Below, in pieces: positions 5,913 through 27,669 of a DNA stretch of 64,000 nt (position 1 is its first letter; each line of letters starts with the position of its first letter). Below the pieces are notes generated by a model. That model worked only from the letters and a program-made list of their open reading frames with translations. It did no database searches and was not told where the DNA came from. Origin of the DNA: Lysinibacillus irui (GTDB lineage: Bacteria > Bacillota > Bacilli > Bacillales_A > Planococcaceae). A program made the position numbers and the translations under genes. Location of the stretch: the NCBI RefSeq assembly GCF_028877475.1, contig NZ_CP113527.1, positions 613,501-677,500 on the forward strand. Reading direction: 5' to 3'.

Positions 5913-5954
5913 ATTCCACAAGGATGTGGAATACAAAACAAACATTCAAGGAGG
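5913..5954 (+). promoter_or_regulatory. CsrA-binding hairpin and second GGA site in the hag leader
   Basis: ATTCCACA (5913-5920) and TGTGGAAT (5925-5932) form a perfect 8-bp stem presenting AGGA as a tetraloop. The ACAAGGATGT core equals the CsrA consensus. A second GGA site is the hag Shine-Dalgarno itself, AAGGAGG at 5948-5954. This two-site layout, one high-affinity hairpin plus the ribosome site, matches the CsrA repression mechanism described for B. subtilis hag. Confidence 0.85.
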
Positions 5955-5962
5955 AATTCCAA

Positions 5963-6871
5963 ATGAGAATTCAACACAACATTTCAGCTTTAAACACACA
6001 CCGTAACCTTACTTTCAACAACACTCAAGCTTCTAAAAACCTTGAGAAATTATCTTCAGGTTACAAAGTAAACCGTGCTGGCGATGACGCTGCTGGTTTA
6101 GCAATCTCTGAAAAAATGCGTGGACAAATCCGTGGTCTTGACATGGCTACTAAAAACGCACAAGATTCAGTATCTTTAATTCAAACTGCTGAGGGTGCTC
6201 TTAACGAAACACACGCAATCCTACAACGTATGCGTGAGTTAGCAGTTCAATCTGCGAACGATACAAACGTATCTTCTGACCGTGCTGCATTACAATTAGA
6301 AATTAACTCTCTAGCAAAAGAAATCACTCGTATTTCTACTGATACTGAGTTCAACACACAAAAATTATTAGATGGTACTTTCGGTGGTAAAGTACAATCA
6401 GGCGCAGACTTTGACATTAATAATGCAACTGCTGCTGAAGGTAAAGTATTCCACATTGGTGCGAACTCTGGTCAATCTATCAACTTAAGCATTGGTAACA
6501 TGTCAGCGTCTGCACTTGGTGTAAATGCTGCTGCTGATCCTGCCGATGTTACTGAGGCTGGTACAGATGGTATTAATATTTCAACTCAATCAGCTGCAGA
6601 TAACTCTATTTCAATTATTGATAAAGCATTAAACCGTGTATCTGAAACTCGTGCATCTTTAGGTGCAGTTCAAAACCGTTTAGAGCACACAATTAATAAC
6701 TTAGGTGCAACATCTGAAAACTTAACAGCTGCTGAATCACGTATCCGTGATACAGATATGGCTAAAGAGATGATGGGCTTCACTAAAAACAACATCTTAA
6801 TGCAAGCTGCACAATCAATGTTAGCTCAAGCTAACCAACAACCACAAGGCGTTCTTCAATTATTAGGTTAA
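5963..6871 (+). CDS. hag: Flagellin
   Basis: A 302-residue flagellin. The N-terminal D0/D1 region begins [15 protein letters not shown] and has [17 protein letters not shown]. The C-terminal D0 helix ends [17 protein letters not shown]. The variable centre (about residues 140-215) is short and rich in Ser, Thr and Asn, so it is the likely surface and glycosylation zone. An upstream in-frame ATG at 5924 lies inside the CsrA hairpin and is not the start. The gene has its own promoter and terminator, and the downstream maf genes suggest it is O-glycosylated. Confidence 0.96.
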
Positions 6872-10285: not shown

Positions 10286-11284
<999 letters not shown>

Positions 11285-11295
11285 AGGAGTTCAAA

Positions 11296-12153
11296 ATGAA
11301 AGGTATTATATTAGCAGGTGGTAGTGGAACACGTTTATATCCGTTAACAAGATCTATTTCTAAACAAATTCTACCGATATATGACAAACCGATGATTTAT
11401 TACCCTTTATCAGTTCTAATGTTGACAGGGATAAAAGAAATACTAGTTATCAGCACTTCAAAAGATTTATCTTTATTTAAGGAATTACTGGGCAACGGGG
11501 CTCAATGGGGAATAACAATAGAATATGCTCAACAGAGTGAACCTAAAGGAATTGCCGATGCTTTTATTGTAGGTGAAGATTTTATCGGTAGTGATTCAGT
11601 TTGTTTAATATTAGGAGATAATATTTTTTATGGACAAGGGTTTACGCCTGTTTTAAAAAAAGCTGCCACATTAAAAGAGGGAGCGATTGTTTTTGGTTAT
11701 CAAGTAAAAGATCCCGAACGTTTTGGTGTTGTTGAATTCGATGAGAATTTAAATGCTATTTCTATAGAAGAAAAGCCAAATGTCCCCAAATCAAATTTTG
11801 CAGTGACTGGTTTATATTTTTATGATAACGATGTAATTTCAATTGCTAAAAATGTGAAGCCATCTAAGCGTGGAGAAATAGAAATTACGGATGTAAATAA
11901 TGAATATTTGAATCGAAAAAAATTAAAAGTCCAACTTCTTGGAAGAGGATTCTCATGGTTAGATACTGGAACATTTGAAAGTTTATTAGAAGCAGGGCAA
12001 TTTGTTGAGACTGTTCAAAAAAGGCAAGGTTATATGATTGCTTGTTTAGAAGAAATTGCTTTAAATAATGGTTGGATTGTAAAAGAAGAAATTAACATTG
12101 GTAAGGGGGAAAATAGCTATAACGTATATGTGAAATATTTAAAGGATAAATAA
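11296..12153 (+). CDS. rfbA: Glucose-1-phosphate thymidylyltransferase
   Basis: A 285-residue RmlA/RfbA-family nucleotidyltransferase that makes dTDP-glucose from dTTP and glucose-1-phosphate. The signature [11 protein letters not shown] is at about 8-18; E-K-P and the late [10 protein letters not shown] motif are also present. The start is ATG 11296, behind AAAGGAG and 11 bp after the pseB stop. It forms a dTDP-sugar set with the VioA-like transaminase, RfbB and the N-formyltransferase. There is no rfbC or rfbD nearby, so L-rhamnose is not the product of this cluster. Confidence 0.93.
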
Positions 12154-12184
12154 TATAAAATTATTAGTAAAGGAGGTTTATGAA

Positions 12185-13267
12185 ATGATACCAGTTACAC
12201 AACCTTTTCTTCCCCCTAAAGAAGATTATGAAAAAAAGTTAGAGTTAATATGGGAAAAGAAATGGTTAACCAATAATGGATACTATGTTTCTAATCTAGA
12301 AAAAATGCTGGAAAGTGAATTGAATGTGCCTAATCTAAAATATGTAACTAATGGAACATTAGCCCTTCAGCTAGCTATAAAGGCATTAGATATACAGGGT
12401 GATATTATTACCACTCCATTTTCTTTCGTCGCAACAACTACCTCTATTTTATGGGAAAAATGTAAGCCTGTATATGTTGATATCGATCCGACAACATTAT
12501 GTATTAATCCTGATAAAATAGAAAGTGCTATTACATCGAATACGGTTGCAATTTTGGCTACACACGTATTTGGTATTCCTTGTGACGTTGAAAAAATAGA
12601 AATAATAGCTAAAAGGCACAATTTGAAAGTGGTTTATGATGGTGCACATGCCTTTGGTGTTACTTATAAAGGACAGTCTATATTTAACTATGGTGATATC
12701 TCAACTTATAGTTTCCATGCAACTAAAGTTTTTCATACAGTAGAGGGGGGAGGTATTACGTGCATTAGTGATGAACTAGTAACAAAAGTTGAACTCTTGC
12801 ATAGCTTTGGTTATTTTGGTGAAGATTTTTATTTACCTGGGATAAATGCAAAAGCGACGGAATTTCATGCCGCAATGGGCTTATGTAACATGAAATACAT
12901 TAAGCAGAATTTAGAAAAGCGAAAAAGAATAAGTGAACAATATAATATGATGCTACCTAAGGAAATTCAAGTTATTCATATTAAGGAGAATGTTGGATAC
13001 AATTATGCATACTATCCTGTTATGTTTGACAGTGAGGATGTCTTATTAAGAGTAATTTCAAATTTACAAACAAAAGAAATACAAACTCGTCGATATTTTT
13101 ATCCATCTTTAAATAAACTATCTTATATTACTGAAAATTTTGACTGTCCAATTTCAGAAAGTGTTTCGAAAAGAATTTTGTGTCTGCCATTATATGTAGA
13201 TTTGGACGAGTATATTGTGAAAGAAATAGCAGATATTATTTATTCAGTAATTGAGGGGAGAAACTAA
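12185..13267 (+). CDS. PLP sugar aminotransferase, VioA-like (dTDP-4-amino-4,6-dideoxyglucose)
   Basis: A 360-residue DegT/DnrJ/EryC1/StrS transaminase. The PLP lysine is K181 in S-F-H-A-T-K-V-F-H-T; the opening I-P-V-T-Q-P-F-L-P-P and W-L-T-N-N-G resemble E. coli O7 VioA as I recall it. VioA converts dTDP-4-keto-6-deoxyglucose to dTDP-viosamine. The flanking rfbA, rfbB and N-formyltransferase genes fit this. An alternative is a C3 transaminase (FdtB-like), but the 3,4-ketoisomerase that would require is absent. AAAGGAGG precedes the ATG. Confidence 0.78.
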   Translation: MIPVTQPFLPPKEDYEKKLELIWEKKWLTNNGYYVSNLEKMLESELNVPNLKYVTNGTLALQLAIKALDIQGDIITTPFSFVATTTSILWEKCKPVYVDIDPTTLCINPDKIESAITSNTVAILATHVFGIPCDVEKIEIIAKRHNLKVVYDGAHAFGVTYKGQSIFNYGDISTYSFHATKVFHTVEGGGITCISDELVTKVELLHSFGYFGEDFYLPGINAKATEFHAAMGLCNMKYIKQNLEKRKRISEQYNMMLPKEIQVIHIKENVGYNYAYYPVMFDSEDVLLRVISNLQTKEIQTRRYFYPSLNKLSYITENFDCPISESVSKRILCLPLYVDLDEYIVKEIADIIYSVIEGRN

Positions 13268-14320
13268 GTGAATCTATTAGTTACAGGTGGAGCAGGATTT
13301 ATTGGTTCTAACTTTATTAGTTATATACTTAGTAAATATCCACAATATAAAATTATTAATTTAGATCTTTTAACATATGCCGGTAATTTAGAGAATTTAA
13401 AAGAAGTTGAAAATCACCCCAATTATGAGTTTGTTGAAGGGGATATTTGTAATCGAGATCTAATAGGTTTTTTATTTAAAAAATATGATTTTCAAGGGGT
13501 TTTCCATTTTGCAGCTGAATCTCATGTTGATAATTCTATCAAAAATCCCGAAACGTTTGTAAAAACAAATGTTAATGGAACTTTTACTTTATTAGATGTA
13601 GCCAGAGGTCATTGGATGGAAGCATCTAATAAGGTGAAAAGAGAATTTGTTAATGCTCGGTTTCATCATGTTTCAACCGATGAGGTTTTTGGTTCATTAG
13701 GAAGTGAAGGATATTTTACTGAAGAAAGTCCTTATGCACCTAATAGTCCTTATTCAGCAAGTAAAGCAGCTTCTGACATGTTAGTTCGAAGTTTTTATCA
13801 TACATATGGAATGAATGTTGTGACGACAAATTGTTCAAATAACTTTGGACCAAGGCAGCATGCTGAAAAGTTGATTCCAACGATTATAAGAAAAGCACTA
13901 GCTTTTGAACATATCCCTATTTATGGAGATGGTTTGAATATTAGAGATTGGTTATATGTAGAAGATCATTGTCGAGCAATTGATTTAGTCTTTCATGAAA
14001 GTGATGCGGGAGAAACTTATTTGATTGGTGGACATAATGAAAAGACTAATTTAGAAATTGTAAATGATATTTGTGGAATTCTAGATGAGAAACTCTCAGA
14101 TAAATTAGAAGAAAACAATATGTATTCTTTTAAAGAATTGATTACTTTTGTTGAGGACCGATCAGGGCATGATTTTAGATATGCGTTAGATTCAAGTAAA
14201 ATTCATGAAAAACTCAAATTTAATTTTGCAGAAAATGACTTTAAAAAAATAGAAAAAACTATAGATTTTTATATAAATTTCAAAAGTAGGGATAACATTG
14301 AAAGTATTAGTTTTAACTGA
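13268..14320 (+). CDS. rfbB: dTDP-glucose 4,6-dehydratase
   Basis: A 350-residue extended short-chain dehydratase producing dTDP-4-keto-6-deoxyglucose. The NAD motif T-G-G-A-G-F-I-G-S-N is at the N-terminus; A-A-E-S-H-V-D-N-S and the catalytic S-T-D-E-V-F-G-S-L and Y-S-A-S-K-A-A-S-D segments are intact. The start is GTG 13268, directly after the transaminase stop, with GAGGGGAG upstream. The 3' end overlaps the next gene by 23 bp. Its product feeds the VioA-like transaminase. Confidence 0.93.
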   Translation: MNLLVTGGAGFIGSNFISYILSKYPQYKIINLDLLTYAGNLENLKEVENHPNYEFVEGDICNRDLIGFLFKKYDFQGVFHFAAESHVDNSIKNPETFVKTNVNGTFTLLDVARGHWMEASNKVKREFVNARFHHVSTDEVFGSLGSEGYFTEESPYAPNSPYSASKAASDMLVRSFYHTYGMNVVTTNCSNNFGPRQHAEKLIPTIIRKALAFEHIPIYGDGLNIRDWLYVEDHCRAIDLVFHESDAGETYLIGGHNEKTNLEIVNDICGILDEKLSDKLEENNMYSFKELITFVEDRSGHDFRYALDSSKIHEKLKFNFAENDFKKIEKTIDFYINFKSRDNIESISFN

Positions 14321-15017
14321 TAATCAAAATATTTATGAAAAATTCCTAAATGATATTTTAAATTCTTTTAAGAGTATAGAATTTGATTTTTACTGTAGTC
14401 CAAATAGTAAATTATTATATATGTTAAAGCCTTTGAACATAAAAAAAAACACTAATGAAATTATTGGAAAATACAGTCTAGTGATTTCTTTGCATTGCAG
14501 ACAAATATTCCCGGAACATTTATTACAAAAGGTACTTTGTGTTAATATTCATCCAGGCTATAACCCCTATAATAGAGGATGGTATCCACATATATTTGGA
14601 ATTATTAATAAAAAGCCAATAGGTGCAACATTGCATATAATGGATGCGAAAATTGATAATGGTCCAGTAATTGATCGAATTCTTATAAAAGTAGAGGCGC
14701 ATGAAACATCTTTAGAAGTTTATAATAAAATATTAGATGCTGAAATAAAATTGTTGAAGAAAAACTTGGCTGCCATTTTTGATCGTACATTTAAAGTTAT
14801 GCTAATTAATAATGAGGCTTTTGATGGTATCAATTATGAAAAAGATTTTATTAATTTATGTGAAATTGATTTAGAAAGTAAGTTGAAATTTCAAGAGGCT
14901 ATCGATTACTTGAGAGCTATGTCACATGGAGAATATAAAAATGCATACTTTTATAATGAAAAAGGTGAAAAAATCTATGTACAATTGAAACTGTTTAAAG
15001 AAGAATATACAGAATGA
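14298..15017 (+). CDS. dTDP-4-amino-4,6-dideoxyglucose N-formyltransferase (VioF-like)
   Basis: A 239-residue sugar N-formyltransferase using N10-formyl-tetrahydrofolate. The motif N-I-H-P-G-Y-N-P-Y-N-R-G-W-Y-P-H starts at N83; with H85 and D120 it supplies the catalytic Asn-His-Asp triad of the family. The predicted product is dTDP-4-formamido-4,6-dideoxyglucose, as for the VioF/WbtJ type. The start is TTG 14298 inside the end of rfbB. Together with rfbA, rfbB and the transaminase it completes a four-gene pathway. The formyl acceptor is inferred from context. Confidence 0.83.
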   Translation: MKVLVLTDNQNIYEKFLNDILNSFKSIEFDFYCSPNSKLLYMLKPLNIKKNTNEIIGKYSLVISLHCRQIFPEHLLQKVLCVNIHPGYNPYNRGWYPHIFGIINKKPIGATLHIMDAKIDNGPVIDRILIKVEAHETSLEVYNKILDAEIKLLKKNLAAIFDRTFKVMLINNEAFDGINYEKDFINLCEIDLESKLKFQEAIDYLRAMSHGEYKNAYFYNEKGEKIYVQLKLFKEEYTE

Positions 15018-15196: not shown

Positions 15197-15983
15197 AATA
15201 TTTTTTGTAAATGAAATAAGAAGACAAAAAAAGGAAGACCTTTTCTGGTAGAATTAAGTCACCATAACCAATCCTAGAAAAGAGGTCTTCCCTATGAATC
15301 AGGTTTACAACAGAATTAATCGAGGCACTAGTAAAAAAACAAGATATTACCGGAGTTTTGTACGCATTTAGAAACAACGGTCAATACGTTGCTGGCAACA
15401 GAACTGACGGTATTTTTAGATTACGAAAAATATTAATCGATCAGCTTTAACTCAGGCAACCCGCAATGATTCGTATTCAATGTACATTGCACACGGAATA
15501 TGGTGATTTAAACATCCAGATTCCTCGCGATCGAAACGGTGAATTCAAGCAATAGACCATCGCACCGTATAAACGCTCAAATGACACGTTAGAATCAACG
15601 GTCATCCATCTCTTCCAAAAAGGGATTACGATTTCAGAAATCGCCGGTTTAATTGAAAAAATGTATGGTCATCATTACACACCACAGACGATTTCTAACA
15701 TGACAAAGGTGGTCACAGAACAAGAAGAAGCCTTTCATAAACGTCCCTTAAACACACGATATGTCTACGTTTATTTAGACACGACTTATATTCCTGTTAG
15801 TCGTCAAACGGTATCCAAAGAAGCTGTTTATATCGCTGTGGGTATTCGTGAGGACGGCTCAAAGGAAGTACTGGCCTACACAATTGTACCAACAGAATCT
15901 GCGTACAACTGTCAAGAACTTCTCCTAGACATGAAGGAGACGTGGTGTCGAAGAAGCTGTATTGTATGCTATTAAAGACTAGA
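15188..15983 (+). mobile_element. Decayed IS256-family insertion sequence remnant
   Basis: The stretch contains an IS256/mutator-type transposase reading frame with several stops and frameshifts. Its right-hand part (catalytic C-terminus and right inverted repeat) is missing. The left boundary is placed where the truncated frame loses similarity to its paralogs, near 15188. A long imperfect inverted repeat (GGAAGACCT near 15230 and AGGTCTTCC near 15290) precedes the transposase start. Exact ends are uncertain because no terminal-repeat pair survives. Confidence 0.75.
15294..15982 (+). pseudogene. IS256-family transposase pseudogene
   Basis: Starts with M-N-Q, then needs a frame change to read T-T-E-L-I-E-A-L-V-K-K-Q-D-I-T. 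Stops occur near 15450 and 15555. A clean block from 15661 reads M-Y-G-H-H-Y-T-P-Q-T-I-S-N and Y-V-Y-L-D-T-T-Y-I-P-V (the first catalytic Asp region), then A-V-G-I-R-E-D-G-S-K-E-V-L. Near 15945 another shift is needed to read R-G-V-E-E-A-V-L-Y, after which the gene ends. It is non-functional: the second and third catalytic acidic residues are gone. Confidence 0.85.
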
Positions 15984-20044: not shown

Positions 20045-20971
20045 GTGACTAATAACATATTATTAACAAGTGTAGGAGGAAAAGTCCCGTTAATTCAATG
20101 TTTGAAAGAAAAAACATCCGCTAAAATAATAGGTTGTGATATTCAAGATTCTATACTAAGTAAAAATTTTTTAGATGATTTTTTCATTGAAGAAAAATTA
20201 GAAAATGTTAATATGAATCAATTCATATTAACTTGTAAAAATAAAAAAATAAATTATATTATTCCAACACGAGAAGCAGATCTCCTTTTTTTTAGTGAAT
20301 GGAAAAATATTTTAGAGAAAGAAAATATTTTTGTAATGGTTTCGGATAGACAAAGTATTGAATTTGTAAATGATAAATATAAATTTTATCAAGCATTAAT
20401 TAAAGAAGATTTAAATGTTATACCTGTAATACAAAAATCAGATTTAAAAGAAAATAAACAATATGTATTGAAGGAATGTAAAGGAGCAGGGTCTAAAAAT
20501 TTATTAGTAAAATTAAATAAAAATCAAGTTCTTGAAAATTACGATTTTTTTGAAGAGCCTATTATTCAACCTTATATTAAAGGAAAAGAATTCAGTATAG
20601 ATATTTATATTACAAAAAATAAAAAAGTAAAAGCTACTATTGTGAGAGAGAGAGTATTAGTAATTGATGGAGAATCTCAGATTACTCAAGTTGTAGAGCA
20701 TCCTAAATTATCAAAGTTAATAGAAAAAGCAGCTTTAGTTTTAAACTTAGAAGGTCATGTTATGTTTCAAGCATTTGAAGATAACAATGGAGAACTTTGG
20801 ATTATAGAGTGTAACGCTCGCATAGGTGGTGCTTCAACGCTTAGTATTTACGCAGGACTAGACACATTTAATTGGTGGATAGCTGAATGTAATGGGCAAA
20901 ACATTGATAATTGGCCTGTAGAAACTAAAATGTTGAAACAAATTCGATATAAAAAGGATTTGATTTTATGA
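20045..20971 (+). CDS. ATP-grasp enzyme, carbamoyl-phosphate-synthase-like
   Basis: A 308-residue ATP-grasp protein. The N-terminus resembles the pre-ATP-grasp domain (N-I-L-L-T-S-V-G-G-K), the middle has the nucleotide-binding strands Y-V-L-K-E-C-K-G-A-G-S-K-N, and the metal-binding motif near the end reads I-I-E-C-N-A-R-I-G-G-A-S. ATP-grasp enzymes join a carboxylate to an amine or thiol through an acyl-phosphate. The start is GTG 20045 with GAGGTGATTTAGG upstream. The stop overlaps the HAD gene by 4 bp. It may attach an acyl or amino-acid group to an amino sugar; the substrate is unknown. Confidence 0.78.
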   Translation: MTNNILLTSVGGKVPLIQCLKEKTSAKIIGCDIQDSILSKNFLDDFFIEEKLENVNMNQFILTCKNKKINYIIPTREADLLFFSEWKNILEKENIFVMVSDRQSIEFVNDKYKFYQALIKEDLNVIPVIQKSDLKENKQYVLKECKGAGSKNLLVKLNKNQVLENYDFFEEPIIQPYIKGKEFSIDIYITKNKKVKATIVRERVLVIDGESQITQVVEHPKLSKLIEKAALVLNLEGHVMFQAFEDNNGELWIIECNARIGGASTLSIYAGLDTFNWWIAECNGQNIDNWPVETKMLKQIRYKKDLIL

Positions 20972-21645
20972 AAAAAGTAGTTGTATTTGATATGGATGAT
21001 ACTGTATATGATGAATTTGATTTTGTTAAAAGTGGATTTCAAGCTGTAGCTCAATATCTAGCTTCAACATACGATTTAAATGAAAAAAATCTTTATAAAT
21101 GGATGTGGAAAGAAGTACTCGAAAAAGGAAGAGGTACTGTTTTCGATAATTTATTAAGAGAGTTGCATCTATATAATAAGACACTAGTTCAAAAATGTAT
21201 CTCGATTTATCGTTTGCACAAACCAAATATAAAACTACCAATTGAAAGTGAAAAAGTGTTACAAAATTTATCTAAGGACTATGTTTTATATCTAGTAACG
21301 GATGGTAATAAAATAGTACAACAAAATAAAGTTACAGCATTAAAAATAGAGCAGTATATGAAGAAGTGTTATATTACATATCGTTATGGAAGAAAGCATA
21401 GCAAACCCTCACCACATTGTTTCAAATTGATTGCTCAAAGAGAGAATATTGAACCTAATCAAATTGTTTATATAGGGGATAATCCAACAAAAGATTTCAT
21501 AGGTATTAAACCACTGGGATTTAAAACGATAAGAATTATGACTGGACAACATAAGGATTTAGAATTAGATAACGAATATGAAGCAGATATTCGAATAAAT
21601 TCTCTGTTGGAACTTCCACCTATATTAAAACAACTGTGGAGATAG
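20968..21645 (+). CDS. HAD-superfamily hydrolase
   Basis: A 225-residue haloacid-dehalogenase-like phosphatase. Motif I is F-D-M-D-D-T-V-Y-D (D7 nucleophile, D9 acid/base), motif II is the L-V-T-D-G strand, motif III is K-P-S-P, and motif IV is Y-I-G-D-N-P-T-K-D. A helical cap lies between motifs I and II. It is coupled to the ATP-grasp gene by an ATGA overlap, so the two probably act on the same substrate. It could remove a phosphate from a sugar or nonulosonic acid intermediate, but no specific substrate is shown. Confidence 0.82.
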   Translation: MKKVVVFDMDDTVYDEFDFVKSGFQAVAQYLASTYDLNEKNLYKWMWKEVLEKGRGTVFDNLLRELHLYNKTLVQKCISIYRLHKPNIKLPIESEKVLQNLSKDYVLYLVTDGNKIVQQNKVTALKIEQYMKKCYITYRYGRKHSKPSPHCFKLIAQRENIEPNQIVYIGDNPTKDFIGIKPLGFKTIRIMTGQHKDLELDNEYEADIRINSLLELPPILKQLWR

Positions 21646-21658
21646 GAGAGATATATAA

Positions 21659-22381
21659 ATGAAAATTATTATTATTATTCAAGCCCGTTTGGGTTCTACT
21701 CGCTTACCAGGGAAAGTTTTGAAGCCACTAGGTGATGTCGATGTTTTAACATATGATATTGAACGCTGTAGAGCAATAAAGGGAGTTGAGAATGTCATTG
21801 TAGCAACCTCTTCTTTACCTCAAGATGATGCTATTGCAGCTTGGTGTGAGAATCACCAAGTAGCCTATTTCCGTGGTTCAGAAGATGATGTATTAGATCG
21901 ATACGTACAATGCGCTAAATTGTATAAACCAGATTATGTGATGCGCATTACATCGGATTGTCCATTTGTTGATTATGAAATGGCATCAGAAATGGTTGAA
22001 TTACTTGAAAAAGAGCCTAAAGAAATTGTATTAATTGATGGTCAATTGCCACGTGGTCTTGCGGTAGAAATTATTTCTTATGAGACTTTGTTAAGAATTA
22101 ATGAGATAGGTCAGGAGCCACGTCACCGTGAACATGTGACCTATTATGCATATGAATTTTCTGAAAAGTTTACTTCGATTACATACAAGGTACCTGAAAA
22201 TCGAAATGCACCAGCGCTTCGTATTACTTTAGATACGGAGGAGGATTATGCATTAATGGTTGAGGTTGCTAAGCACTTTAACAATCCACTTGTATCAAGT
22301 GCTGATGTAATTCACTTTTTGAAAGAGCATCCAGAAGTAGCTAAAATAAATGCTTGTATTGAGCAAAAGCCAGTGATTTAA
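21659..22381 (+). CDS. pseF: SpsF/PseF-type cytidylyltransferase
   Basis: A 240-residue nucleotidyltransferase opening I-I-I-I-Q-A-R-L-G-S-T-R-L-P-G-K-V-L, with S-D-C-P-F-V-D as the metal-binding motif and an R-G-L-A-V-E-I segment late. This SpsF-like type does the job of PseF, activating pseudaminic acid to CMP-pseudaminic acid, in many Gram-positive flagellar clusters. The next gene, pseG, starts right after its stop. The activity is inferred from the pseG-pseI neighbours. Confidence 0.8.
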   Translation: MKIIIIIQARLGSTRLPGKVLKPLGDVDVLTYDIERCRAIKGVENVIVATSSLPQDDAIAAWCENHQVAYFRGSEDDVLDRYVQCAKLYKPDYVMRITSDCPFVDYEMASEMVELLEKEPKEIVLIDGQLPRGLAVEIISYETLLRINEIGQEPRHREHVTYYAYEFSEKFTSITYKVPENRNAPALRITLDTEEDYALMVEVAKHFNNPLVSSADVIHFLKEHPEVAKINACIEQKPVI

Positions 22382-23338
22382 ATGAACGTTATTATTCGTA
22401 CAGATGCTTCTATTACAATCGGCAGTGGACATGTAATGCGTTGTTTGACGATCGCTAAAAGTCTTCGAAGACATGGGTTTAATGTTTTATTTTGGATGGA
22501 TTCTTTGGAGGGTAATTTAATCCAATATGTACAGCAACAGGGTTTTGAGTGTTGTAAAACAGCTCTCGAAGCAGATTTATATATAATTGACCATTATGCA
22601 TTAGAAGTAAAGTGGGAAAAATCAATTCGTCCCTTCACGAAAAAGATTGTAGTCATTGATGATTTAGCACGTAAACATGATTGTGATTTGATATTAGACC
22701 AAAATGTTATTCCACAGTTTGAAACACGCTATGACAAGAAAGTCCCAGCACATTGTGTAACGTTACTTGGTCCGAAATATCTGATTATGCGTGATGAATT
22801 TTTACGACAGCGGCAGAAATTAAGACATCGAGGAAACCAAATCAATAGGCTTCTTATTTTCATGGGGGGCAGTGATTCAACGAATGAAACGATGAAAATT
22901 TTAAGTGCGATAGAAAGTCTTAATTTTGTACATGTCGATGTAGTCGTAGGCAATAGTAATCCGAGGAAAGAACAAATTAAACAAATTTGTTCGAAACGAA
23001 ATTATCATTTTCATTGCCAAATAAACTATATGGCAAAGTTAATGCAGCTAGCAGACTTTGCGATAGGCGCAGGTGGAAGTACGCTTTGGGAACGTTGTTA
23101 TGTTGGTCTTCCTTCAAGTTCGACAATTGTTGCCGATAATCAAAGAGAGACAACTACTTATGCTGGACAATTAGGTGTAACAATAAATTTAGGATGGCAT
23201 GAGGAAGTAACTTCTAACACGTATAGTCAATTATTAACGGACCTACAAATGAAAGGCATGAGTGAAAAAGGTCTAGAACTTACAGCAAATGAGCAACCAA
23301 ATGCTTGGTTGTATGAAATTTTGGAGTTGATAAAATGA
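22382..23338 (+). CDS. pseG: UDP-2,4-diacetamido-2,4,6-trideoxy-altropyranose hydrolase, PseG
   Basis: A 318-residue GT-B-fold hydrolase that removes UDP from the bacillosamine-like altrose intermediate before condensation. The N-terminal signature is T-I-G-S-G-H-V-M-R-C with the catalytic His, followed by I-D-D-L-A-R-K-H-D-C-D and L-D-Q-N; the donor-binding part shows G-A-G-G-S-T-L-W-E-R. ATG 22382 follows the pseF stop directly, and the end overlaps pseI by 4 bp. If the C4 amine is formylated rather than acetylated here, the substrate would differ from that of Campylobacter PseG. Confidence 0.88.
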   Translation: MNVIIRTDASITIGSGHVMRCLTIAKSLRRHGFNVLFWMDSLEGNLIQYVQQQGFECCKTALEADLYIIDHYALEVKWEKSIRPFTKKIVVIDDLARKHDCDLILDQNVIPQFETRYDKKVPAHCVTLLGPKYLIMRDEFLRQRQKLRHRGNQINRLLIFMGGSDSTNETMKILSAIESLNFVHVDVVVGNSNPRKEQIKQICSKRNYHFHCQINYMAKLMQLADFAIGAGGSTLWERCYVGLPSSSTIVADNQRETTTYAGQLGVTINLGWHEEVTSNTYSQLLTDLQMKGMSEKGLELTANEQPNAWLYEILELIK

Positions 23339-24381
23339 TAAAAATAGGACATAAAGAAATTGGACGTCATACTAAACCATTTATTATTGCAGAAATGTCA
23401 GGTAATCATAACCAATCATTAGAACGTGCTTTACACTTAGTAGAGTTAGCTGCAGAAGCAGGTGTTGATGCGTTAAAGCTACAAACCTATACACCTGATA
23501 CAATTACCTTGGATGTACATACTAACGAATTTTTCATTCAGGATGAAAGTAATCTTTGGAAGGGTAATTCTCTCTACAATTTATATAAAGAAGCTTATAC
23601 TCCTTGGGAATGGCACGAAGCTATCTTTAATCGTGCAAAAGAACTTGGCCTATTAGCGTTTAGTTCACCTTTCGATGAAACAGCCGTTGATTTTTTAGAA
23701 ACTCTGAATGTACCTGCTTATAAAATTGCCTCTTTTGAAAACGTGGATATACCATTAATTAGAAAAGTGGCGCGTACTGGTAAACCAATTATTATTTCGA
23801 CCGGTATGGCAACAGCAGCAGAGTTGGATGAAGCAGTTCGTGTTGCGAAAGCTGAAGGAAATCATCAAATAGTATTATTAAAATGTACTAGTACATACCC
23901 TGCAACACCGGAGAATTCTAATATAGCGACAATACCTCATATGCATGAACTATTTAGAACTGAAATTGGTTTATCAGATCACACAATGGGAGTCGGGGTA
24001 TCAGTTGCCGCAGTAGCTTTAGGTGCAACTGTTATTGAGAAACATTTCACCACTTCAAGAGCTCATGGTGGAGTAGATTCTGCATTTTCAATGGAGCCAC
24101 ACGAGTTAAAAATGTTAGTTGAGGAAACTGAACGTGCATGGCAAAGCGTGGGACAAATTCAATATGGCTCGACTGAGGCTGAGAAAGGTTCAGAAATATT
24201 CCGACGTTCATTATATATAGGGGAAGACTTAAAAACTGGTGACATTTTAACTGAGGAGAATCTACGAAATGTTCGACCAGGATTAGGCTTACCGACAAAA
24301 TACTATGATTTAGTGCTTGGGAAAACTGTTAAACAAGATGTAAAAAAAGGAACACCTTTAAGTTGGGAGTTATTACTGTGA
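23335..24381 (+). CDS. pseI: Pseudaminic acid synthase, PseI
   Basis: A 348-residue NeuB-family enzyme that condenses a 6-deoxy hexose with phosphoenolpyruvate. The TIM-barrel domain shows I-I-A-E-M-S-G-N-H-N, D-A-L-K-L-Q-T-Y, F-S-S-P-F-D, S-T-G-M-A and L-S-D-H-T-M-G. The last 60 residues form an antifreeze-like SAF domain (R-R-S-L-Y-I onward). The Y-T-P-D-T-I-T-L pattern is typical of PseI rather than of sialic or legionaminic acid synthases. It overlaps both neighbours by 4 bp. Confidence 0.92.
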   Translation: MIKIGHKEIGRHTKPFIIAEMSGNHNQSLERALHLVELAAEAGVDALKLQTYTPDTITLDVHTNEFFIQDESNLWKGNSLYNLYKEAYTPWEWHEAIFNRAKELGLLAFSSPFDETAVDFLETLNVPAYKIASFENVDIPLIRKVARTGKPIIISTGMATAAELDEAVRVAKAEGNHQIVLLKCTSTYPATPENSNIATIPHMHELFRTEIGLSDHTMGVGVSVAAVALGATVIEKHFTTSRAHGGVDSAFSMEPHELKMLVEETERAWQSVGQIQYGSTEAEKGSEIFRRSLYIGEDLKTGDILTEENLRNVRPGLGLPTKYYDLVLGKTVKQDVKKGTPLSWELLL

Positions 24382-25718
24382 ATGAATTAAATGAAATGGA
24401 CGAATTGTTTGATCGACTTTTTCCAATTATGCGTAGTATTACAGGAGAAGGTGTTCGAGAAACAATTCGCATCCTACAAGAATATATTCCACTTAAAATG
24501 GAAGGAATTCCAACAGGAACAAAAGTATTTGATTGGGAAATTCCAAAAGAGTGGGTTATCCGAGAAGCTTGGATTAAGGATGAGCATGGTGAGACAATCA
24601 TTGATATCAAGGATTTAAATTTACATGTTGTTAATTATAGTGAGCCTATAGATATGTGGCTTTCTCTTAAGGAATTAAAGAAACATGTACATACGATTCC
24701 ACATCTACCAGAAGCTGTGCCCTATGTTATTTCCTATTATAAGGAACGTTGGGGTTTTTGCATGAGCCAAAACCAGTTAGAGGATCTTCCAGATGGCAAG
24801 TACCATGTGTATATTGATAGTGAAAAAATTGATGGTGAGTTAAACTTTGCTCAAGCTGTTTTACCTGGAAAATCAAGAAAAGAAGTTTTAATTAGTACAT
24901 ATATTTGTCATCCTTCCATGGCGAATAACGAACTAAGTGGACCAATTGTTGCAGCCTTTTTATATAATCGCCTTAAACAGTGGGAAAATAGAGAGCTAAC
25001 TTATCGATTTGTTTTTTTACCTGAAACAATAGGATCTATTGCCTATTTATCGAAATACGGACAACATTTAAAGGAGAATATGTATTCCGGAGCAGTATTA
25101 ACTTGTTTGGGTGGTAAAGAACATCAACTTAGTTACAAGAAATCTCGTAATACTAATGCGCCACTTAATAATTTGTTAACCTACTTAAAAGAAAGTGGAC
25201 AATATAGTTATCCAATACGTCCATTTACACCATTGTTTGGTTCAGATGAACGTCAATATTGTTCGCCTGGTTTTAATTTGCCAGTAGGGCAGTTCTCTAA
25301 AATGATATATGGAGCGTACCAAGGCTATCATAATTCTTTCGATACAAAAGAGCATATGACAATAGAAGCTTTATTAAATAGTGTCAATGAAATTGAATAT
25401 ATTTTACAGCTACAAGAATTAGATGGCTATTATATTAATAAAAAACCATTTGGTGAACCAAAACTAGGAAAATATGATCTTTATCCTGATATAAATGCCC
25501 CTGGGTCATGGGGAAGCTCTAGTAGTAAAAAAATAGATAATCGACAACAATTAAATCAAGTACTAACACTTTTAAGTTATTCTGATGGGAAACATAAATT
25601 ATCCGATGTAGCTAAAACATTAAACTATTCACTAGAAGATTATAAAATTTCAATTGATGTATTAAAAGAGCATCAATTACTTGAAGGTCCATTTTACGAC
25701 GAGAAGGAGTTATTTTAG
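24378..25718 (+). CDS. DUF4910 aminopeptidase-like protein with C-terminal winged helix
   Basis: A 446-residue protein with a DUF2172/DUF4910 (zinc aminopeptidase-like, M28-related) body and a short C-terminal winged-helix segment (from about residue 375) of the HTH_47 type. Candidate metal or active-site segments are I-C-H-P-S-M-A-N-N-E-L-S-G and F-L-P-E-T-I-G-S. GTG 24378 overlaps the pseI stop as GTGA and has GGGAG 8 bp upstream; the in-frame TTG at 24363 overlaps that site. Such genes recur in surface-sugar clusters, but no biochemical role is known to me. It may process an amide on a sugar. Confidence 0.8.
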   Translation: MNELNEMDELFDRLFPIMRSITGEGVRETIRILQEYIPLKMEGIPTGTKVFDWEIPKEWVIREAWIKDEHGETIIDIKDLNLHVVNYSEPIDMWLSLKELKKHVHTIPHLPEAVPYVISYYKERWGFCMSQNQLEDLPDGKYHVYIDSEKIDGELNFAQAVLPGKSRKEVLISTYICHPSMANNELSGPIVAAFLYNRLKQWENRELTYRFVFLPETIGSIAYLSKYGQHLKENMYSGAVLTCLGGKEHQLSYKKSRNTNAPLNNLLTYLKESGQYSYPIRPFTPLFGSDERQYCSPGFNLPVGQFSKMIYGAYQGYHNSFDTKEHMTIEALLNSVNEIEYILQLQELDGYYINKKPFGEPKLGKYDLYPDINAPGSWGSSSSKKIDNRQQLNQVLTLLSYSDGKHKLSDVAKTLNYSLEDYKISIDVLKEHQLLEGPFYDEKELF

Positions 25719-26524
25719 TGAGAGTATTATTACTAACAGGATCACATCCGAGACATATATATATAGTAAATAGACTAGCTGAATTAGGCTTAGTAGCTGC
25801 ACATGTTATGGAAATCCGAGAGGCGTTTATTCCTCAGCCACCAGCCAATCTAGAAGAAATGGATCGCTTGAACTTTATTCGACATTTTGCAGATAGAGAT
25901 GAAGCAGAACAGCGCCATTTTGCAGGACATGAAAAAGTACAACTTGAAATTCCAACTTTAAATGTGTCTTTAGCACAGTTAAATAGTGAGGAAACAATTA
26001 AGTGGATTGCTTCACAATCATTTGATATAGCTATTAGTTATGGGGTACATAAGTTATCTGACGAGTTATTAAATGTTCTACCAAAGCATTCATGGAATAT
26101 TCATGGTGGACTTTCACCTTGGTATAAAGGAAACACCACACTATTTTGGCCATTCTTTATGTTACGTCCAAATTGGGCAGGTATGACAGTCCACCGATTA
26201 TCGGCGCGTTTAGACGCGGGAGATATTGTCCATCAATCAGTTCCAAATTTAGATTATGGAGATGGTCTTCATGATGTTGCTTGTAAAGCGGTCGTTCAAG
26301 TTGCTAAGGATTTATCTACAATTCTAACTACAACATCTCTTGACCAAGTAGATTATTATCCGCAAAAAGGAAATGGGAAACTTTGGATAGGTAATGATTG
26401 GATGCCACAGCATCTACGCTTTGTTTACAATCAATATAAGAATGATATTGTAGACCAGTTTTTAGACGGCAAAATACCTAGAATTGATCCTCCTATTATT
26501 TCTGCTTTGAGAAATGAGGAATAG
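25718..26524 (+). CDS. Formyltransferase-family protein in the pseudaminic acid cluster
   Basis: A 268-residue formyltransferase with N127, H129 (N-I-H-G-G-L-S-P-W-Y-K-G) and D166 (R-L-D-A-G-D-I-V), matching the Asn-His-Asp triad of folate-dependent formyltransferases. It lacks a tRNA-binding domain, so it is not methionyl-tRNA formyltransferase. It lies between the DUF4910 gene and pseC. No PseH acetyltransferase is encoded in the window, so it may formylate the C4 amine made by PseC. That role is inference. GTG overlaps the previous stop by one base. Confidence 0.82.
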   Translation: MRVLLLTGSHPRHIYIVNRLAELGLVAAHVMEIREAFIPQPPANLEEMDRLNFIRHFADRDEAEQRHFAGHEKVQLEIPTLNVSLAQLNSEETIKWIASQSFDIAISYGVHKLSDELLNVLPKHSWNIHGGLSPWYKGNTTLFWPFFMLRPNWAGMTVHRLSARLDAGDIVHQSVPNLDYGDGLHDVACKAVVQVAKDLSTILTTTSLDQVDYYPQKGNGKLWIGNDWMPQHLRFVYNQYKNDIVDQFLDGKIPRIDPPIISALRNEE

Positions 26525-26526
26525 AT

Positions 26527-27669
26527 ATGAAAAAATTGCCTGAATTTCTTTCCTATGGTCGTCAATCTATTGATGAGGACGACATACAGATTGTTATAGA
26601 AACATTACGCTCACCTTTTTTAACACAAGGACCAAAAATTCAACAGTTTGAGCAGGCAATTGCTGATTATGTGGGCGCTCAATATGCAGTTGCGTTTTGT
26701 AACGGAACAGCAGCACTTCACGCAGCATGTTATGCATCAGGTATAAGTGAAGGTGATGAGGTAATTACTTCACCCATTACATTTGCGGCTAGTGCTAACT
26801 GTGTTAGATATACGGGAGGAACGGTTGTTTTTGCAGATATTGATGCAAATACATACAACATTGATCCTGAAGAGATAAGAAAAAAGATAACACCAAATAC
26901 GAAGGCAATCATCCCAGTTGATTTTACAGGCCAACCAGCAGACATGGATGCAATCATGGACATCGCACGTGAACATAACCTAGTTGTGATTGAAGACGGT
27001 GCTCACTCTCTTGGTGCTGAATATAAAGGGGAAAAAGTTGGTACCCAGGCACATATGACAATGTTTAGCTTCCATCCTGTTAAGCCAATTACTACAGCTG
27101 AAGGCGGTATTATTGTAACGAATAATGAGGACTATTATCGTAAATTACAACTCTTCCGTAGTCATGGTATTGAGCGAACGGACTATTCAGCTGATCAAGG
27201 TAGTTGGTATTATGAAATGACTGACCTCGGCTATAATTGTCGAATGACTGATTTACAAGCTGCACTTGGTTTATCTCAAATTAAAAAAATTGATACGTTT
27301 ATCCAACAACGTCGTGAAATTGCAGCATTTTATACGGAGGCATTTCAAGATATAGAAAGAATTATCGTTCCACAGCAACTAGAGGGAACTAATTCCGGTT
27401 GGCATTTGTATATGCTTCAGCTTGAGGAAATATCTCGTAAGTTTGTGTTTGAACAAATGAGATCTTTAAATATAGGAGTTCATGTACATTATATTCCTGT
27501 ATATTGGCACCCATATTATCGGGAACTGGGTTATGAACGTGGAATATGTCCAATTGCAGAAAAGTGGTATGAAAAAGCTTTAACATTACCAATTCATCCA
27601 AATATGACTGTAGAAGATTTATCAATAATCGTGTCGAATATTAAAGAATTAATAAAACAACCGAAATAA
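26527..27669 (+). CDS. pseC: UDP-4-amino-4,6-dideoxy-N-acetyl-altrosamine transaminase, PseC
   Basis: A 380-residue PLP-dependent sugar aminotransferase of the DegT family that acts on the PseB product. The internal aldimine lysine is K186 in S-F-H-P-V-K-P-I-T-T-A-E-G-G; I-E-D-G-A-H-S-L-G-A supplies the cofactor aspartate. The opening Y-G-R-Q-S-I-D-E-D-D-I and F-L-T-Q-G-P match PseC. It is the last gene of this unit, 2 bp after the formyltransferase, and is followed by a strong terminator. Confidence 0.9.
   Translation: MKKLPEFLSYGRQSIDEDDIQIVIETLRSPFLTQGPKIQQFEQAIADYVGAQYAVAFCNGTAALHAACYASGISEGDEVITSPITFAASANCVRYTGGTVVFADIDANTYNIDPEEIRKKITPNTKAIIPVDFTGQPADMDAIMDIAREHNLVVIEDGAHSLGAEYKGEKVGTQAHMTMFSFHPVKPITTAEGGIIVTNNEDYYRKLQLFRSHGIERTDYSADQGSWYYEMTDLGYNCRMTDLQAALGLSQIKKIDTFIQQRREIAAFYTEAFQDIERIIVPQQLEGTNSGWHLYMLQLEEISRKFVFEQMRSLNIGVHVHYIPVYWHPYYRELGYERGICPIAEKWYEKALTLPIHPNMTVEDLSIIVSNIKELIKQPK

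What the first reader, a model, noticed from the sequence alone, without database searches (positions are those of the whole stretch)
20045..27669. Pseudaminic acid pathway without PseH but with a formyltransferase: possible N-formyl pseudaminic acid
PseB, PseC, PseG, PseI and a PseF-type enzyme are all encoded, yet no GNAT-type PseH acetyltransferase is visible. Instead a free-standing formyltransferase with an intact Asn-His-Asp triad (N127, H129, D166) sits next to pseC and is translationally linked to pseI through the DUF4910 gene. The simple reading is that the C4 amine is formylated rather than acetylated, giving a nonulosonic acid variant on flagellin.
Basis: inference. Interest (0 to 1): 0.8.

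Follow-up and report, generated by a model that had tools for sequence, protein, structure and literature searches.

The report
Formyl-swapping cassette for flagellar pseudaminic acid
This Lysinibacillus-type bacterium has the genes for the flagellar sugar pseudaminic acid but no PseH acetyltransferase that passes the family's cut-off; its formyltransferase, found beside a peptidase-like protein in every related gene cluster with it that was examined, likely swaps an acetyl group already on the sugar for formyl, and PseH is likely replaced by a different pair of enzymes next door.

Summary
The genes are as described: PseB, a SpsF-type cytidylyltransferase, PseG, PseI, DUF4910, formyltransferase (FT) and PseC. 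No gene in the genome reaches the PseH cut-off (best 58.8 bits against 93.1). That FT stands in for PseH is not supported. Of 55 loci with over-cut-off PseC in the order, 12 carry this FT, and 9 of those 12 genomes also carry PseH. What tracks PseH loss is an ATP-grasp/HAD pair just upstream (20045-21645): 5 of 5 genomes with it lack PseH, and 2 of the 5 loci lack FT too. In these loci FT always has DUF4910 beside it (12 of 12), and DUF4910 always has FT or an AAC(3)-like acyltransferase (14 of 14). Two loci 90-96% identical in nine genes differ in the DUF4910-FT cassette. PseJ-type formyltransferases sit in the PseH slot of 5 other loci; the window FT is not one. Campylobacter jejuni Cj1295, in the same family by published assignment, is needed to replace the N5 acyl group of pseudaminic acid; cleavage is its authors' hypothesis. 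I predict N5-formyl pseudaminic acid: DUF4910 removes the N5 acetyl, FT re-acylates, ATP-grasp/HAD acylates N7. A new variant of a known kind; no chemistry is shown.

The parts
10313..11284 (+). pseB, UDP-GlcNAc 4,6-dehydratase (inverting)
   Evidence: TIGR03589 546.4 bits, cut-off 407.75
20045..20971 (+). ATP-grasp ligase with PylC-like N-terminal domain; proposed to acylate the C4 amine (N7) in place of PseH
   Evidence: PF15632 59.6 bits, PF02655 54.2, PF21360 31.5; with the HAD gene in 5 of 55 loci, 0 of 5 genomes with PseH over cut-off
20968..21645 (+). HAD phosphatase-like partner of the ATP-grasp gene
   Evidence: PF13419 69.5 bits; overlaps the ATP-grasp gene by 4 bases; directly downstream of it in all 5 loci
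21659..22381 (+). SpsF-type cytidylyltransferase, predicted CMP-Pse synthetase
   Evidence: PF02348 102.1 bits; below the PseF equivalog cut-off
22382..23338 (+). pseG, UDP-sugar hydrolase, no GNAT match
   Evidence: TIGR03590 270.8 bits
23335..24381 (+). pseI, pseudaminic acid synthase
   Evidence: TIGR03586 504.4 bits
24378..25718 (+). DUF4910/DUF2172/HTH_47 peptidase-like protein, proposed N5 de-N-acetylase
25718..26524 (+). formyltransferase (FT, 268 aa), proposed to formylate the freed N5 amine
26527..27669 (+). pseC, aminotransferase
   Evidence: TIGR03588 497.8 bits

Best explanation
The formyltransferase at 25718-26524 is likely the second half of a DUF4910-formyltransferase cassette that would exchange the acetyl group on N5 of pseudaminic acid for formyl, and the missing PseH is likely replaced by the ATP-grasp/HAD pair at 20045-21645. 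Shown by sequence: the genes, their order and coupling, the absence of a PseH over cut-off, the FT-DUF4910 pairing in the loci read, the presence of PseH in most FT-bearing genomes read, and the lack of PseH in all five genomes with ATP-grasp/HAD. Inferred: PseB and PseC make the UDP-4-amino sugar; the ATP-grasp enzyme joins a carboxylic acid, perhaps an amino acid, to the C4 amine (later N7), with the HAD protein removing a phosphate from donor or product; PseG, PseI and the cytidylyltransferase make the CMP sugar; at some stage before transfer DUF4910, a metal-dependent amidase-like protein, removes the N-acetyl inherited from GlcNAc and FT puts a formyl from N10-formyl-tetrahydrofolate on the freed amine. 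Predicted product on flagellin: Pse5Fo7X, X unknown.
For: (1) Of 55 over-cut-off PseC loci, 12 have FT+DUF4910: 9 with PseH, 3 with ATP-grasp/HAD (window, G244, G248) (presence rechecked by tblastn). (2) FT with DUF4910 12 of 12; DUF4910 with FT or AAC(3)-like acyltransferase 14 of 14; the AAC pairs coexist with PseH (L042) and with PseJ (L025). (3) ATP-grasp/HAD: 5 of 5 genomes without PseH, 2 of 5 loci without FT (G242, G194). On a PseI tree it needs 5 changes, 3 of them forced by well-supported branches; in 3 independent pairs lack of any GNAT goes with it in all 3, lack of over-cut-off PseH in 2.6 on average. FT shows no such link to PseH: same way 0.5, other way 0.3, no difference 2.2 of 3. 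(4) G029 (cassette) against G027 (none): GNAT 94%, AMP-ligase 93%, SDR 91%, LuxE 95%, LuxC 92%, cytidylyltransferase 94%, PseG 90%, PseI 96%, PseC 91% identical. (5) Five other loci carry a PseJ-type FT in the PseH slot; the 3 searched match PDB PseJ at E 7e-66 to 4e-58, the window FT only at about 3e-5. (6) C. jejuni Cj1295, an aminopeptidase-like protein encoded beside two Pse genes, is required for pseudaminic acid with 5-(2,3-di-O-methylglyceroyl)amino in place of 5-acetamido; its authors propose that it cleaves the C5 acetamido (PMC3068675). (7) DUF4910-FT or DUF4910-AAC pairs recur in 4 of 5 full-length DUF4910 loci read from other Bacillota families, and AAC with DUF4910 near pse or NeuB genes on plasmids of Tritonibacter, Agrobacterium and Maritalea.
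Against: No enzyme activity or glycan structure is known to me for this organism. The Zn ligand Asp195 of 3k9t is Asn189 here and in 36 of 36 aligned sequences, and the authors of 3k9t state that the usual M28 catalytic residues are missing and consider transacylation as well as an amidase (PMC4000134), so hydrolysis is uncertain. Halorussus has a DUF4910 beside a PseG-like gene with no FT or AAC match in 25 kb; L102 has DUF4910 without FT or AAC; L106 has a DUF4910 fragment at a contig start directly before PseC with no FT between. FT is somewhat commoner among ATP-grasp/HAD loci (3 of 5) than elsewhere (9 of 50). The window itself, taken alone, fits the simple reading. Independent-pair counts are too few for significance.
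Confidence: 0.5

Rival explanations
1. One reading: FT formylates the C4 amine of the PseC product in place of PseH, giving Pse5Ac7Fo; DUF4910 and ATP-grasp/HAD act elsewhere.
For: No PseH over cut-off in the genome; FT is next to pseC; its closest solved relative by sequence is ArnA; Pse with 7-formamido is known in Pseudoalteromonas distincta (PMC3210612); PseJ-type proteins show that a formyltransferase can occupy the PseH slot.
Against: 9 of 12 FT loci lie in genomes with PseH; the cassette plus/minus pair keeps its GNAT; two ATP-grasp/HAD loci lack FT while their genomes lack PseH; FT is not a PseJ orthologue.
Confidence: 0.22
2. DUF4910 is not a deacetylase but a transacylase or scaffold partner of FT, and FT formylates another amine of the same sugar, for example the amino group of an amino acid placed on N7 by the ATP-grasp enzyme.
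For: DUF4910 has lost the usual M28 catalytic residues and transacylation to an amino sugar was suggested for it (PMC4000134); PylC-like ATP-grasp enzymes join amino acids to amines (recalled); an alanyl-bearing sugar, Leg5Ac7AcAla, exists (PMC7371886).
Against: The cassette also occurs in 9 of 12 loci that have PseH and no ATP-grasp/HAD, and DUF4910 with AAC occurs beside PseJ (L025), where N7 would carry no free amine.
Confidence: 0.13
3. DUF4910-FT acts on a different amino sugar of the flagellin glycan, not on pseudaminic acid.
For: The locus encodes other sugars, including a dTDP-4-amino-4,6-dideoxyglucose formyltransferase cluster at 11239-15017.
Against: The pair lies between pseI and pseC and overlaps pseI, in loci whose other sugar genes differ; the other predicted sugar has its own formyltransferase (NF005755 266.3 bits, cut-off 238).
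Confidence: 0.1

Closest known systems
C. jejuni Cj1295 system (PMC3068675)
   Same: Aminopeptidase-like protein of the same published family as C. acetobutylicum 3k9t, encoded beside two Pse biosynthesis genes (Cj1293, Cj1294) and near a gene listed as N-acetyltransferase (Cj1296/7), in a flagellin pseudaminic acid locus; needed for exchange of the N5 acyl group
   Different: There the new N5 acyl is di-O-methylglyceroyl; here the partner is a formyltransferase, so formyl is predicted. Cj1295's own sequence was not compared here
PseJ (PDB 6ci2, 6ci4, 6ci5, 6edk)
   Same: A formyltransferase in a Pse locus
   Different: The PseJ-type proteins found here are 188-202 aa; the 3 searched match PDB PseJ at E 7e-66 to 4e-58, and all 5 sit between PseG and PseI, the PseH slot. 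The window FT is 268 aa, aligns to them at 27-31% over 83-93 residues, pairs with DUF4910 and coexists with PseH in relatives
Geobacillus flagellin glycosylation islands types II-IV (PMC5109656)
   Same: Pse genes without PseH reported in types II-IV; a formyltransferase (fmt2) in both type III strains
   Different: There too, reported PseH absence does not follow the formyltransferase; the words DUF4910, peptidase and ATP-grasp do not occur in the main text
Halorubrum sp. PV6 5-N-formyl-legionaminic acid (PMC6137143)
   Same: N5-formyl nonulosonic acid with a putative formyltransferase gene in the cluster
   Different: Legionaminic acid in an archaeon; the word peptidase does not occur in the text
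CA_C2195, PDB 3k9t (PMC4000134)
   Different: Zn ligand Asp195 is Asn189 here, followed by Glu190

Membership tests
CMP-pseudaminic acid pathway | PseB, PseC, PseG and PseI above equivalog cut-offs | tested here: met
CMP-pseudaminic acid pathway | PseH acetyltransferase | tested here: not met
   best 58.8 bits against cut-off 93.1 in the whole genome, completeness 99.99%
CMP-pseudaminic acid pathway | PseF equivalog cytidylyltransferase | tested here: not met
   22.6 bits against 205.7 for 21659-22381; an SpsF-type CTP_transf_3 protein stands there instead. The rest of the genome was not searched for PseF
Sugar N-formyltransferase (Formyl_trans_N fold) | Domain over cut-off, Asn-His-Asp triad, fold of ArnA/Fmt | tested here: met
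PseJ (PseH-slot formyltransferase) | Orthology by profile to the PseJ-type proteins | tested here: not met
   FT-family members of the loci score 35.6-46.2 bits on a PseJ-type profile against 330-361 for its own five members, and 540-567 on the FT profile; each profile was built from its own members, so own scores are high by construction. Window FT to the five: 27-31% over 83-93 residues, while L026 to the other four is 48-54% over 189-190
PseJ (PseH-slot formyltransferase) | Occurs in place of PseH | tested here: not met
   9 of 12 FT loci have PseH in the genome
DUF4910 (3k9t-like) family | DUF4910, DUF2172 and HTH_47 domains, M28-like fold | tested here: met
DUF4910 (3k9t-like) family | Zn ligands His189, Asp195, His324 of 3k9t | tested here: inconclusive
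   H183 and H323 kept; Asp195 is Asn189
Cj1295-type N5 acyl-exchange module | DUF4910 gene next to an N-acyltransferase in a Pse locus | tested here: met
Cj1295-type N5 acyl-exchange module | Sequence relationship to Cj1295 itself | not tested
   Cj1295's sequence was not at hand; the link rests on the family assignments in PMC3068675 and PMC4000134
Cj1295-type N5 acyl-exchange module | Change of the N5 acyl group on the sugar | not testable with these tools
   needs glycan analysis

The most novel reading that the evidence does not exclude
Flagellar pseudaminic acid in these bacilli carries a two-position acyl code set by swappable gene cassettes: N7 by GNAT (with acyl-ligase modules), PseJ or an ATP-grasp/HAD aminoacyl ligase, and N5 by a DUF4910 de-N-acetylase paired with a formyltransferase or an AAC(3)-like acyltransferase; the window's strain makes an undescribed N5-formyl, N7-aminoacyl pseudaminic acid.
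Probability: 0.33. Interest if true: 0.75.

Novelty: new variant of a known kind. Interest (0 to 1): 0.6.

Why it matters
It turns a long-open question, what DUF4910 does in nonulosonic acid loci, into a directly testable one: a formyl group is an easily tracked acyl mark, and strains with and without the cassette in otherwise near-identical loci already exist. It also points to an ATP-grasp/HAD pair as a likely, so far unrecognised substitute for PseH, and warns that a formyltransferase in a Pse locus without PseH need not be the PseH substitute.

Tried and rejected
FT as the PseH substitute: rejected as best reading because 9 of 12 FT genomes carry PseH. FT as a PseJ orthologue: rejected. 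A hidden PseH elsewhere in the genome: 42 weak matches, none over cut-off; that one of these GNATs acts as PseH cannot be excluded. A GNAT fused to PseG: PseG is 318 aa and showed no GNAT match. Asn at the metal ligand as a mark of Pse-linked DUF4910: the ANNELSGP form is in 23 of 24 rows read (six rows are second copies, so 17 of 18 distinct), and in 5 of 5 full-length ones; the one D form there (L081) and 3k9t are few, and 3k9t comes from a locus with a sialic acid synthase gene (PMC4000134), so no rule is claimed. Shared contig lengths between the FT and DUF4910 homologue lists: 43 shared among 119 and 119 distinct; both lists are cut at 120, so I rest nothing on it.

Literature searched: 'pseudaminic' with 'PseJ' 0 papers; 'pseudaminic acid' with 'formyltransferase' 7; 'pseudaminic' with 'N-formyl' 3; two of Anoxybacillus, formyltransferase, pseudaminic 8; formamido terms, 30 of 1,742 listed, mostly unrelated; DUF4910 2; three of pseudaminic, deacetylase, aminopeptidase, nonulosonic 12; 'pseudaminic acid' with 'ATP-grasp' 3; 'legionaminic acid' with alanyl and nonulosonic 4. 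In what I opened of these I saw no assignment of N5 formylation of pseudaminic acid or of an ATP-grasp/HAD PseH substitute; not every listed paper was opened, and most subscription journals are not held. Shewanella flagellin with a mono-N-acetyl pseudaminic acid and a second unit (PMC3765264, passages) was looked at and not used.

Rows dropped and parts not examined: of 60 PseC matches the 5 below the family cut-off (L073-L077) were left out of the 55-locus table; L054 is in the table but not in the 54-row PseI tree for want of a clear PseI. In one search six loci print as 'none'; five (L029, L040, L048, L066, L072) carry a GNAT below the PseH cut-off or divergent, L054 none recognised. Some stretches are cut by contig ends (L036 is 4.8 kb), so absence of the cassette there is not shown. 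Of the 12 other genomes with a DUF4910 match (13 of 398) I fetched 6, five full-length and one fragment; the six not fetched scored 74-115 bits. Of 42 plasmid records with DUF4910 I opened 10: 4 lie near pse or NeuB genes, 5 in PIG-L/CDP-sugar-type clusters, 1 (NGR234) bears no annotation and gave no pse match.
Full report
Observation. The window lies in a 4.70 Mb genome in two contigs, completeness 99.99%; its nearest named relatives are Lysinibacillus and Ureibacillus, so Lysinibacillus is inferred. The locus runs from a flagellin gene (5924-6871, by sequence) and two proteins with the PF01973 domain (their role as MAF-type flagellin glycosyltransferases is recalled) through PseB, a dTDP-sugar cluster and glycosyltransferase-like genes to the genes of the finding, then FlaG- and FliD-like genes (by sequence). 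PseB, PseC, PseG and PseI all pass their equivalog cut-offs. The cytidylyltransferase is SpsF-like, not PseF. The formyltransferase (FT) has its triad and is coupled through DUF4910 to pseI. No PseH over cut-off exists in the genome.

Comparison across the order. PseC was found in 60 of 261 genomes at the threshold used, 55 over the family cut-off. I fetched up to 20 kb around each of the other 59, more upstream DNA for 13, mapped the genes and searched all 55 genomes for PseH. The table (with the GNAT reading): 37 genomes with PseH over cut-off, 5 loci with PseJ, 5 with ATP-grasp/HAD (window included), 2 with another ATP-grasp gene, 5 with a sub-cut-off or divergent GNAT, and 1 (L054) with none recognised. 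FT with DUF4910 is in 12: 9 of the PseH class and 3 of the ATP-grasp/HAD class. AAC(3)-like with DUF4910 is in 2: one PseH, one PseJ. A tblastn recheck gave the same sets. So the N7-slot enzyme and the DUF4910 cassette vary separately.

FT is not the PseH substitute. If FT replaced PseH, FT loci should lack PseH; 9 of 12 have it, and FT is no commoner in genomes without PseH (3 of 18) than with it (9 of 37). The GNAT in FT loci is not a different enzyme: G029 (FT present) and G027 (FT absent) share GNAT at 94% and eight other genes at 90-96%, and G246/G235 share GNAT at 90%. In the FT-less member the GNAT is the only N-acyltransferase recognised in the stretch read. Loci in which a formyltransferase does occupy the PseH slot carry a PseJ-type protein: L023, L025 and L026 match PDB PseJ at E 4e-58, 7e-66 and 4e-62, and L031 and L036 are 48% and 51% identical to the L026 protein.

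ATP-grasp/HAD is the better candidate. It sits just 5' of the cytidylyltransferase, where the GNAT sits in L057, L061 and L064. All 5 genomes with it lack PseH over cut-off; two of the loci (G242, G194) have neither FT nor PseJ in the stretch read, so it is the only N7 acylation candidate recognised there. On the PseI tree it needs 5 changes (3 forced by well-supported branches) and FT needs 7. In 3 independent pairs lack of any GNAT goes with ATP-grasp/HAD in all 3, lack of over-cut-off PseH in 2.6 on average; FT shows no link to PseH. ATP-grasp/HAD and FT themselves lean weakly together (same way 1.0, other way 0.1 of 3 pairs; 3 of 5 against 9 of 50 loci). These counts are too small for significance. 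In L021 and L063 another ATP-grasp gene lies between PseG and PseI, the usual PseH slot, and neither genome has PseH over cut-off. In a distant Bacillota genome (L104) ATP-grasp, HAD, a PseI/NeuB-type gene, cytidylyltransferase, PseG, DUF4910 and FT stand in one row; no PseB or PseC was recognised in that stretch, so its sugar is not established. The PylC-like domain suggests an amino acid as donor; this is inference.

Caveats. The metal ligand Asp is Asn here (36 of 36). FT's best solved relative by sequence is ArnA. PseG, PseI and the cytidylyltransferase are nearly the same with and without the cassette, which suggests tolerance or action after CMP activation; this is inference. Everything about substrates is untested.

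Known and new. [quoted passage not shown] PseJ is known to me here by its PDB name; its paper (Reimer et al. 2018) is recalled, not read. An alanyl-bearing sugar, Leg5Ac7AcAla, is cited in PMC7371886 (passage). Pse loci reported to lack PseH are described in Geobacillus (PMC5109656, passages). New here, as far as the searches listed under Tried and rejected reach: the FT-DUF4910 cassette, its independence from PseH, and ATP-grasp/HAD as the likely PseH substitute.

Noticed in passing
window 11239-15017: A dTDP-sugar cluster: RmlA, DegT aminotransferase, RmlB and a dTDP-4-amino-4,6-dideoxyglucose formyltransferase (NF005755 266.3 bits over cut-off 238), so a second formylated amino sugar is predicted in the same flagellin locus.
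   Followed up: partly
window 15661-15975: A 104-aa remnant of a Mutator-family transposase (PF00872, 84.2 bits), between the dTDP-sugar cluster and the glycosyltransferase-like genes.
   Followed up: no
L035, L056, L062 and others, 5' of the cytidylyltransferase: In relatives the GNAT is followed by an AMP-binding acyl ligase and often LuxE- and LuxC-like genes, or by an AMP ligase and an SDR reductase: apparent modules for unusual N7 acyl groups; what LuxC and LuxE make here is unclear.
   Followed up: partly
L021 and L063: A different ATP-grasp gene and an SDR between PseG and PseI, with a ~300-aa gene nearby (a methyltransferase in L063), and no PseH over cut-off in either genome.
   Followed up: partly
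L054: A Pse-like locus with a PIG-L de-N-acetylase directly before PseC and a WbqC-like gene, no GNAT, PseJ or ATP-grasp/HAD recognised.
   Followed up: no
window 24921-24944 (DUF4910 residues 187-194, ANNELSGP): Asn-Glu stands where 3k9t has the zinc ligand Asp195 and Asn; the form is shared by DUF4910 of Bacillota, Alphaproteobacteria and a haloarchaeon.
   Followed up: partly
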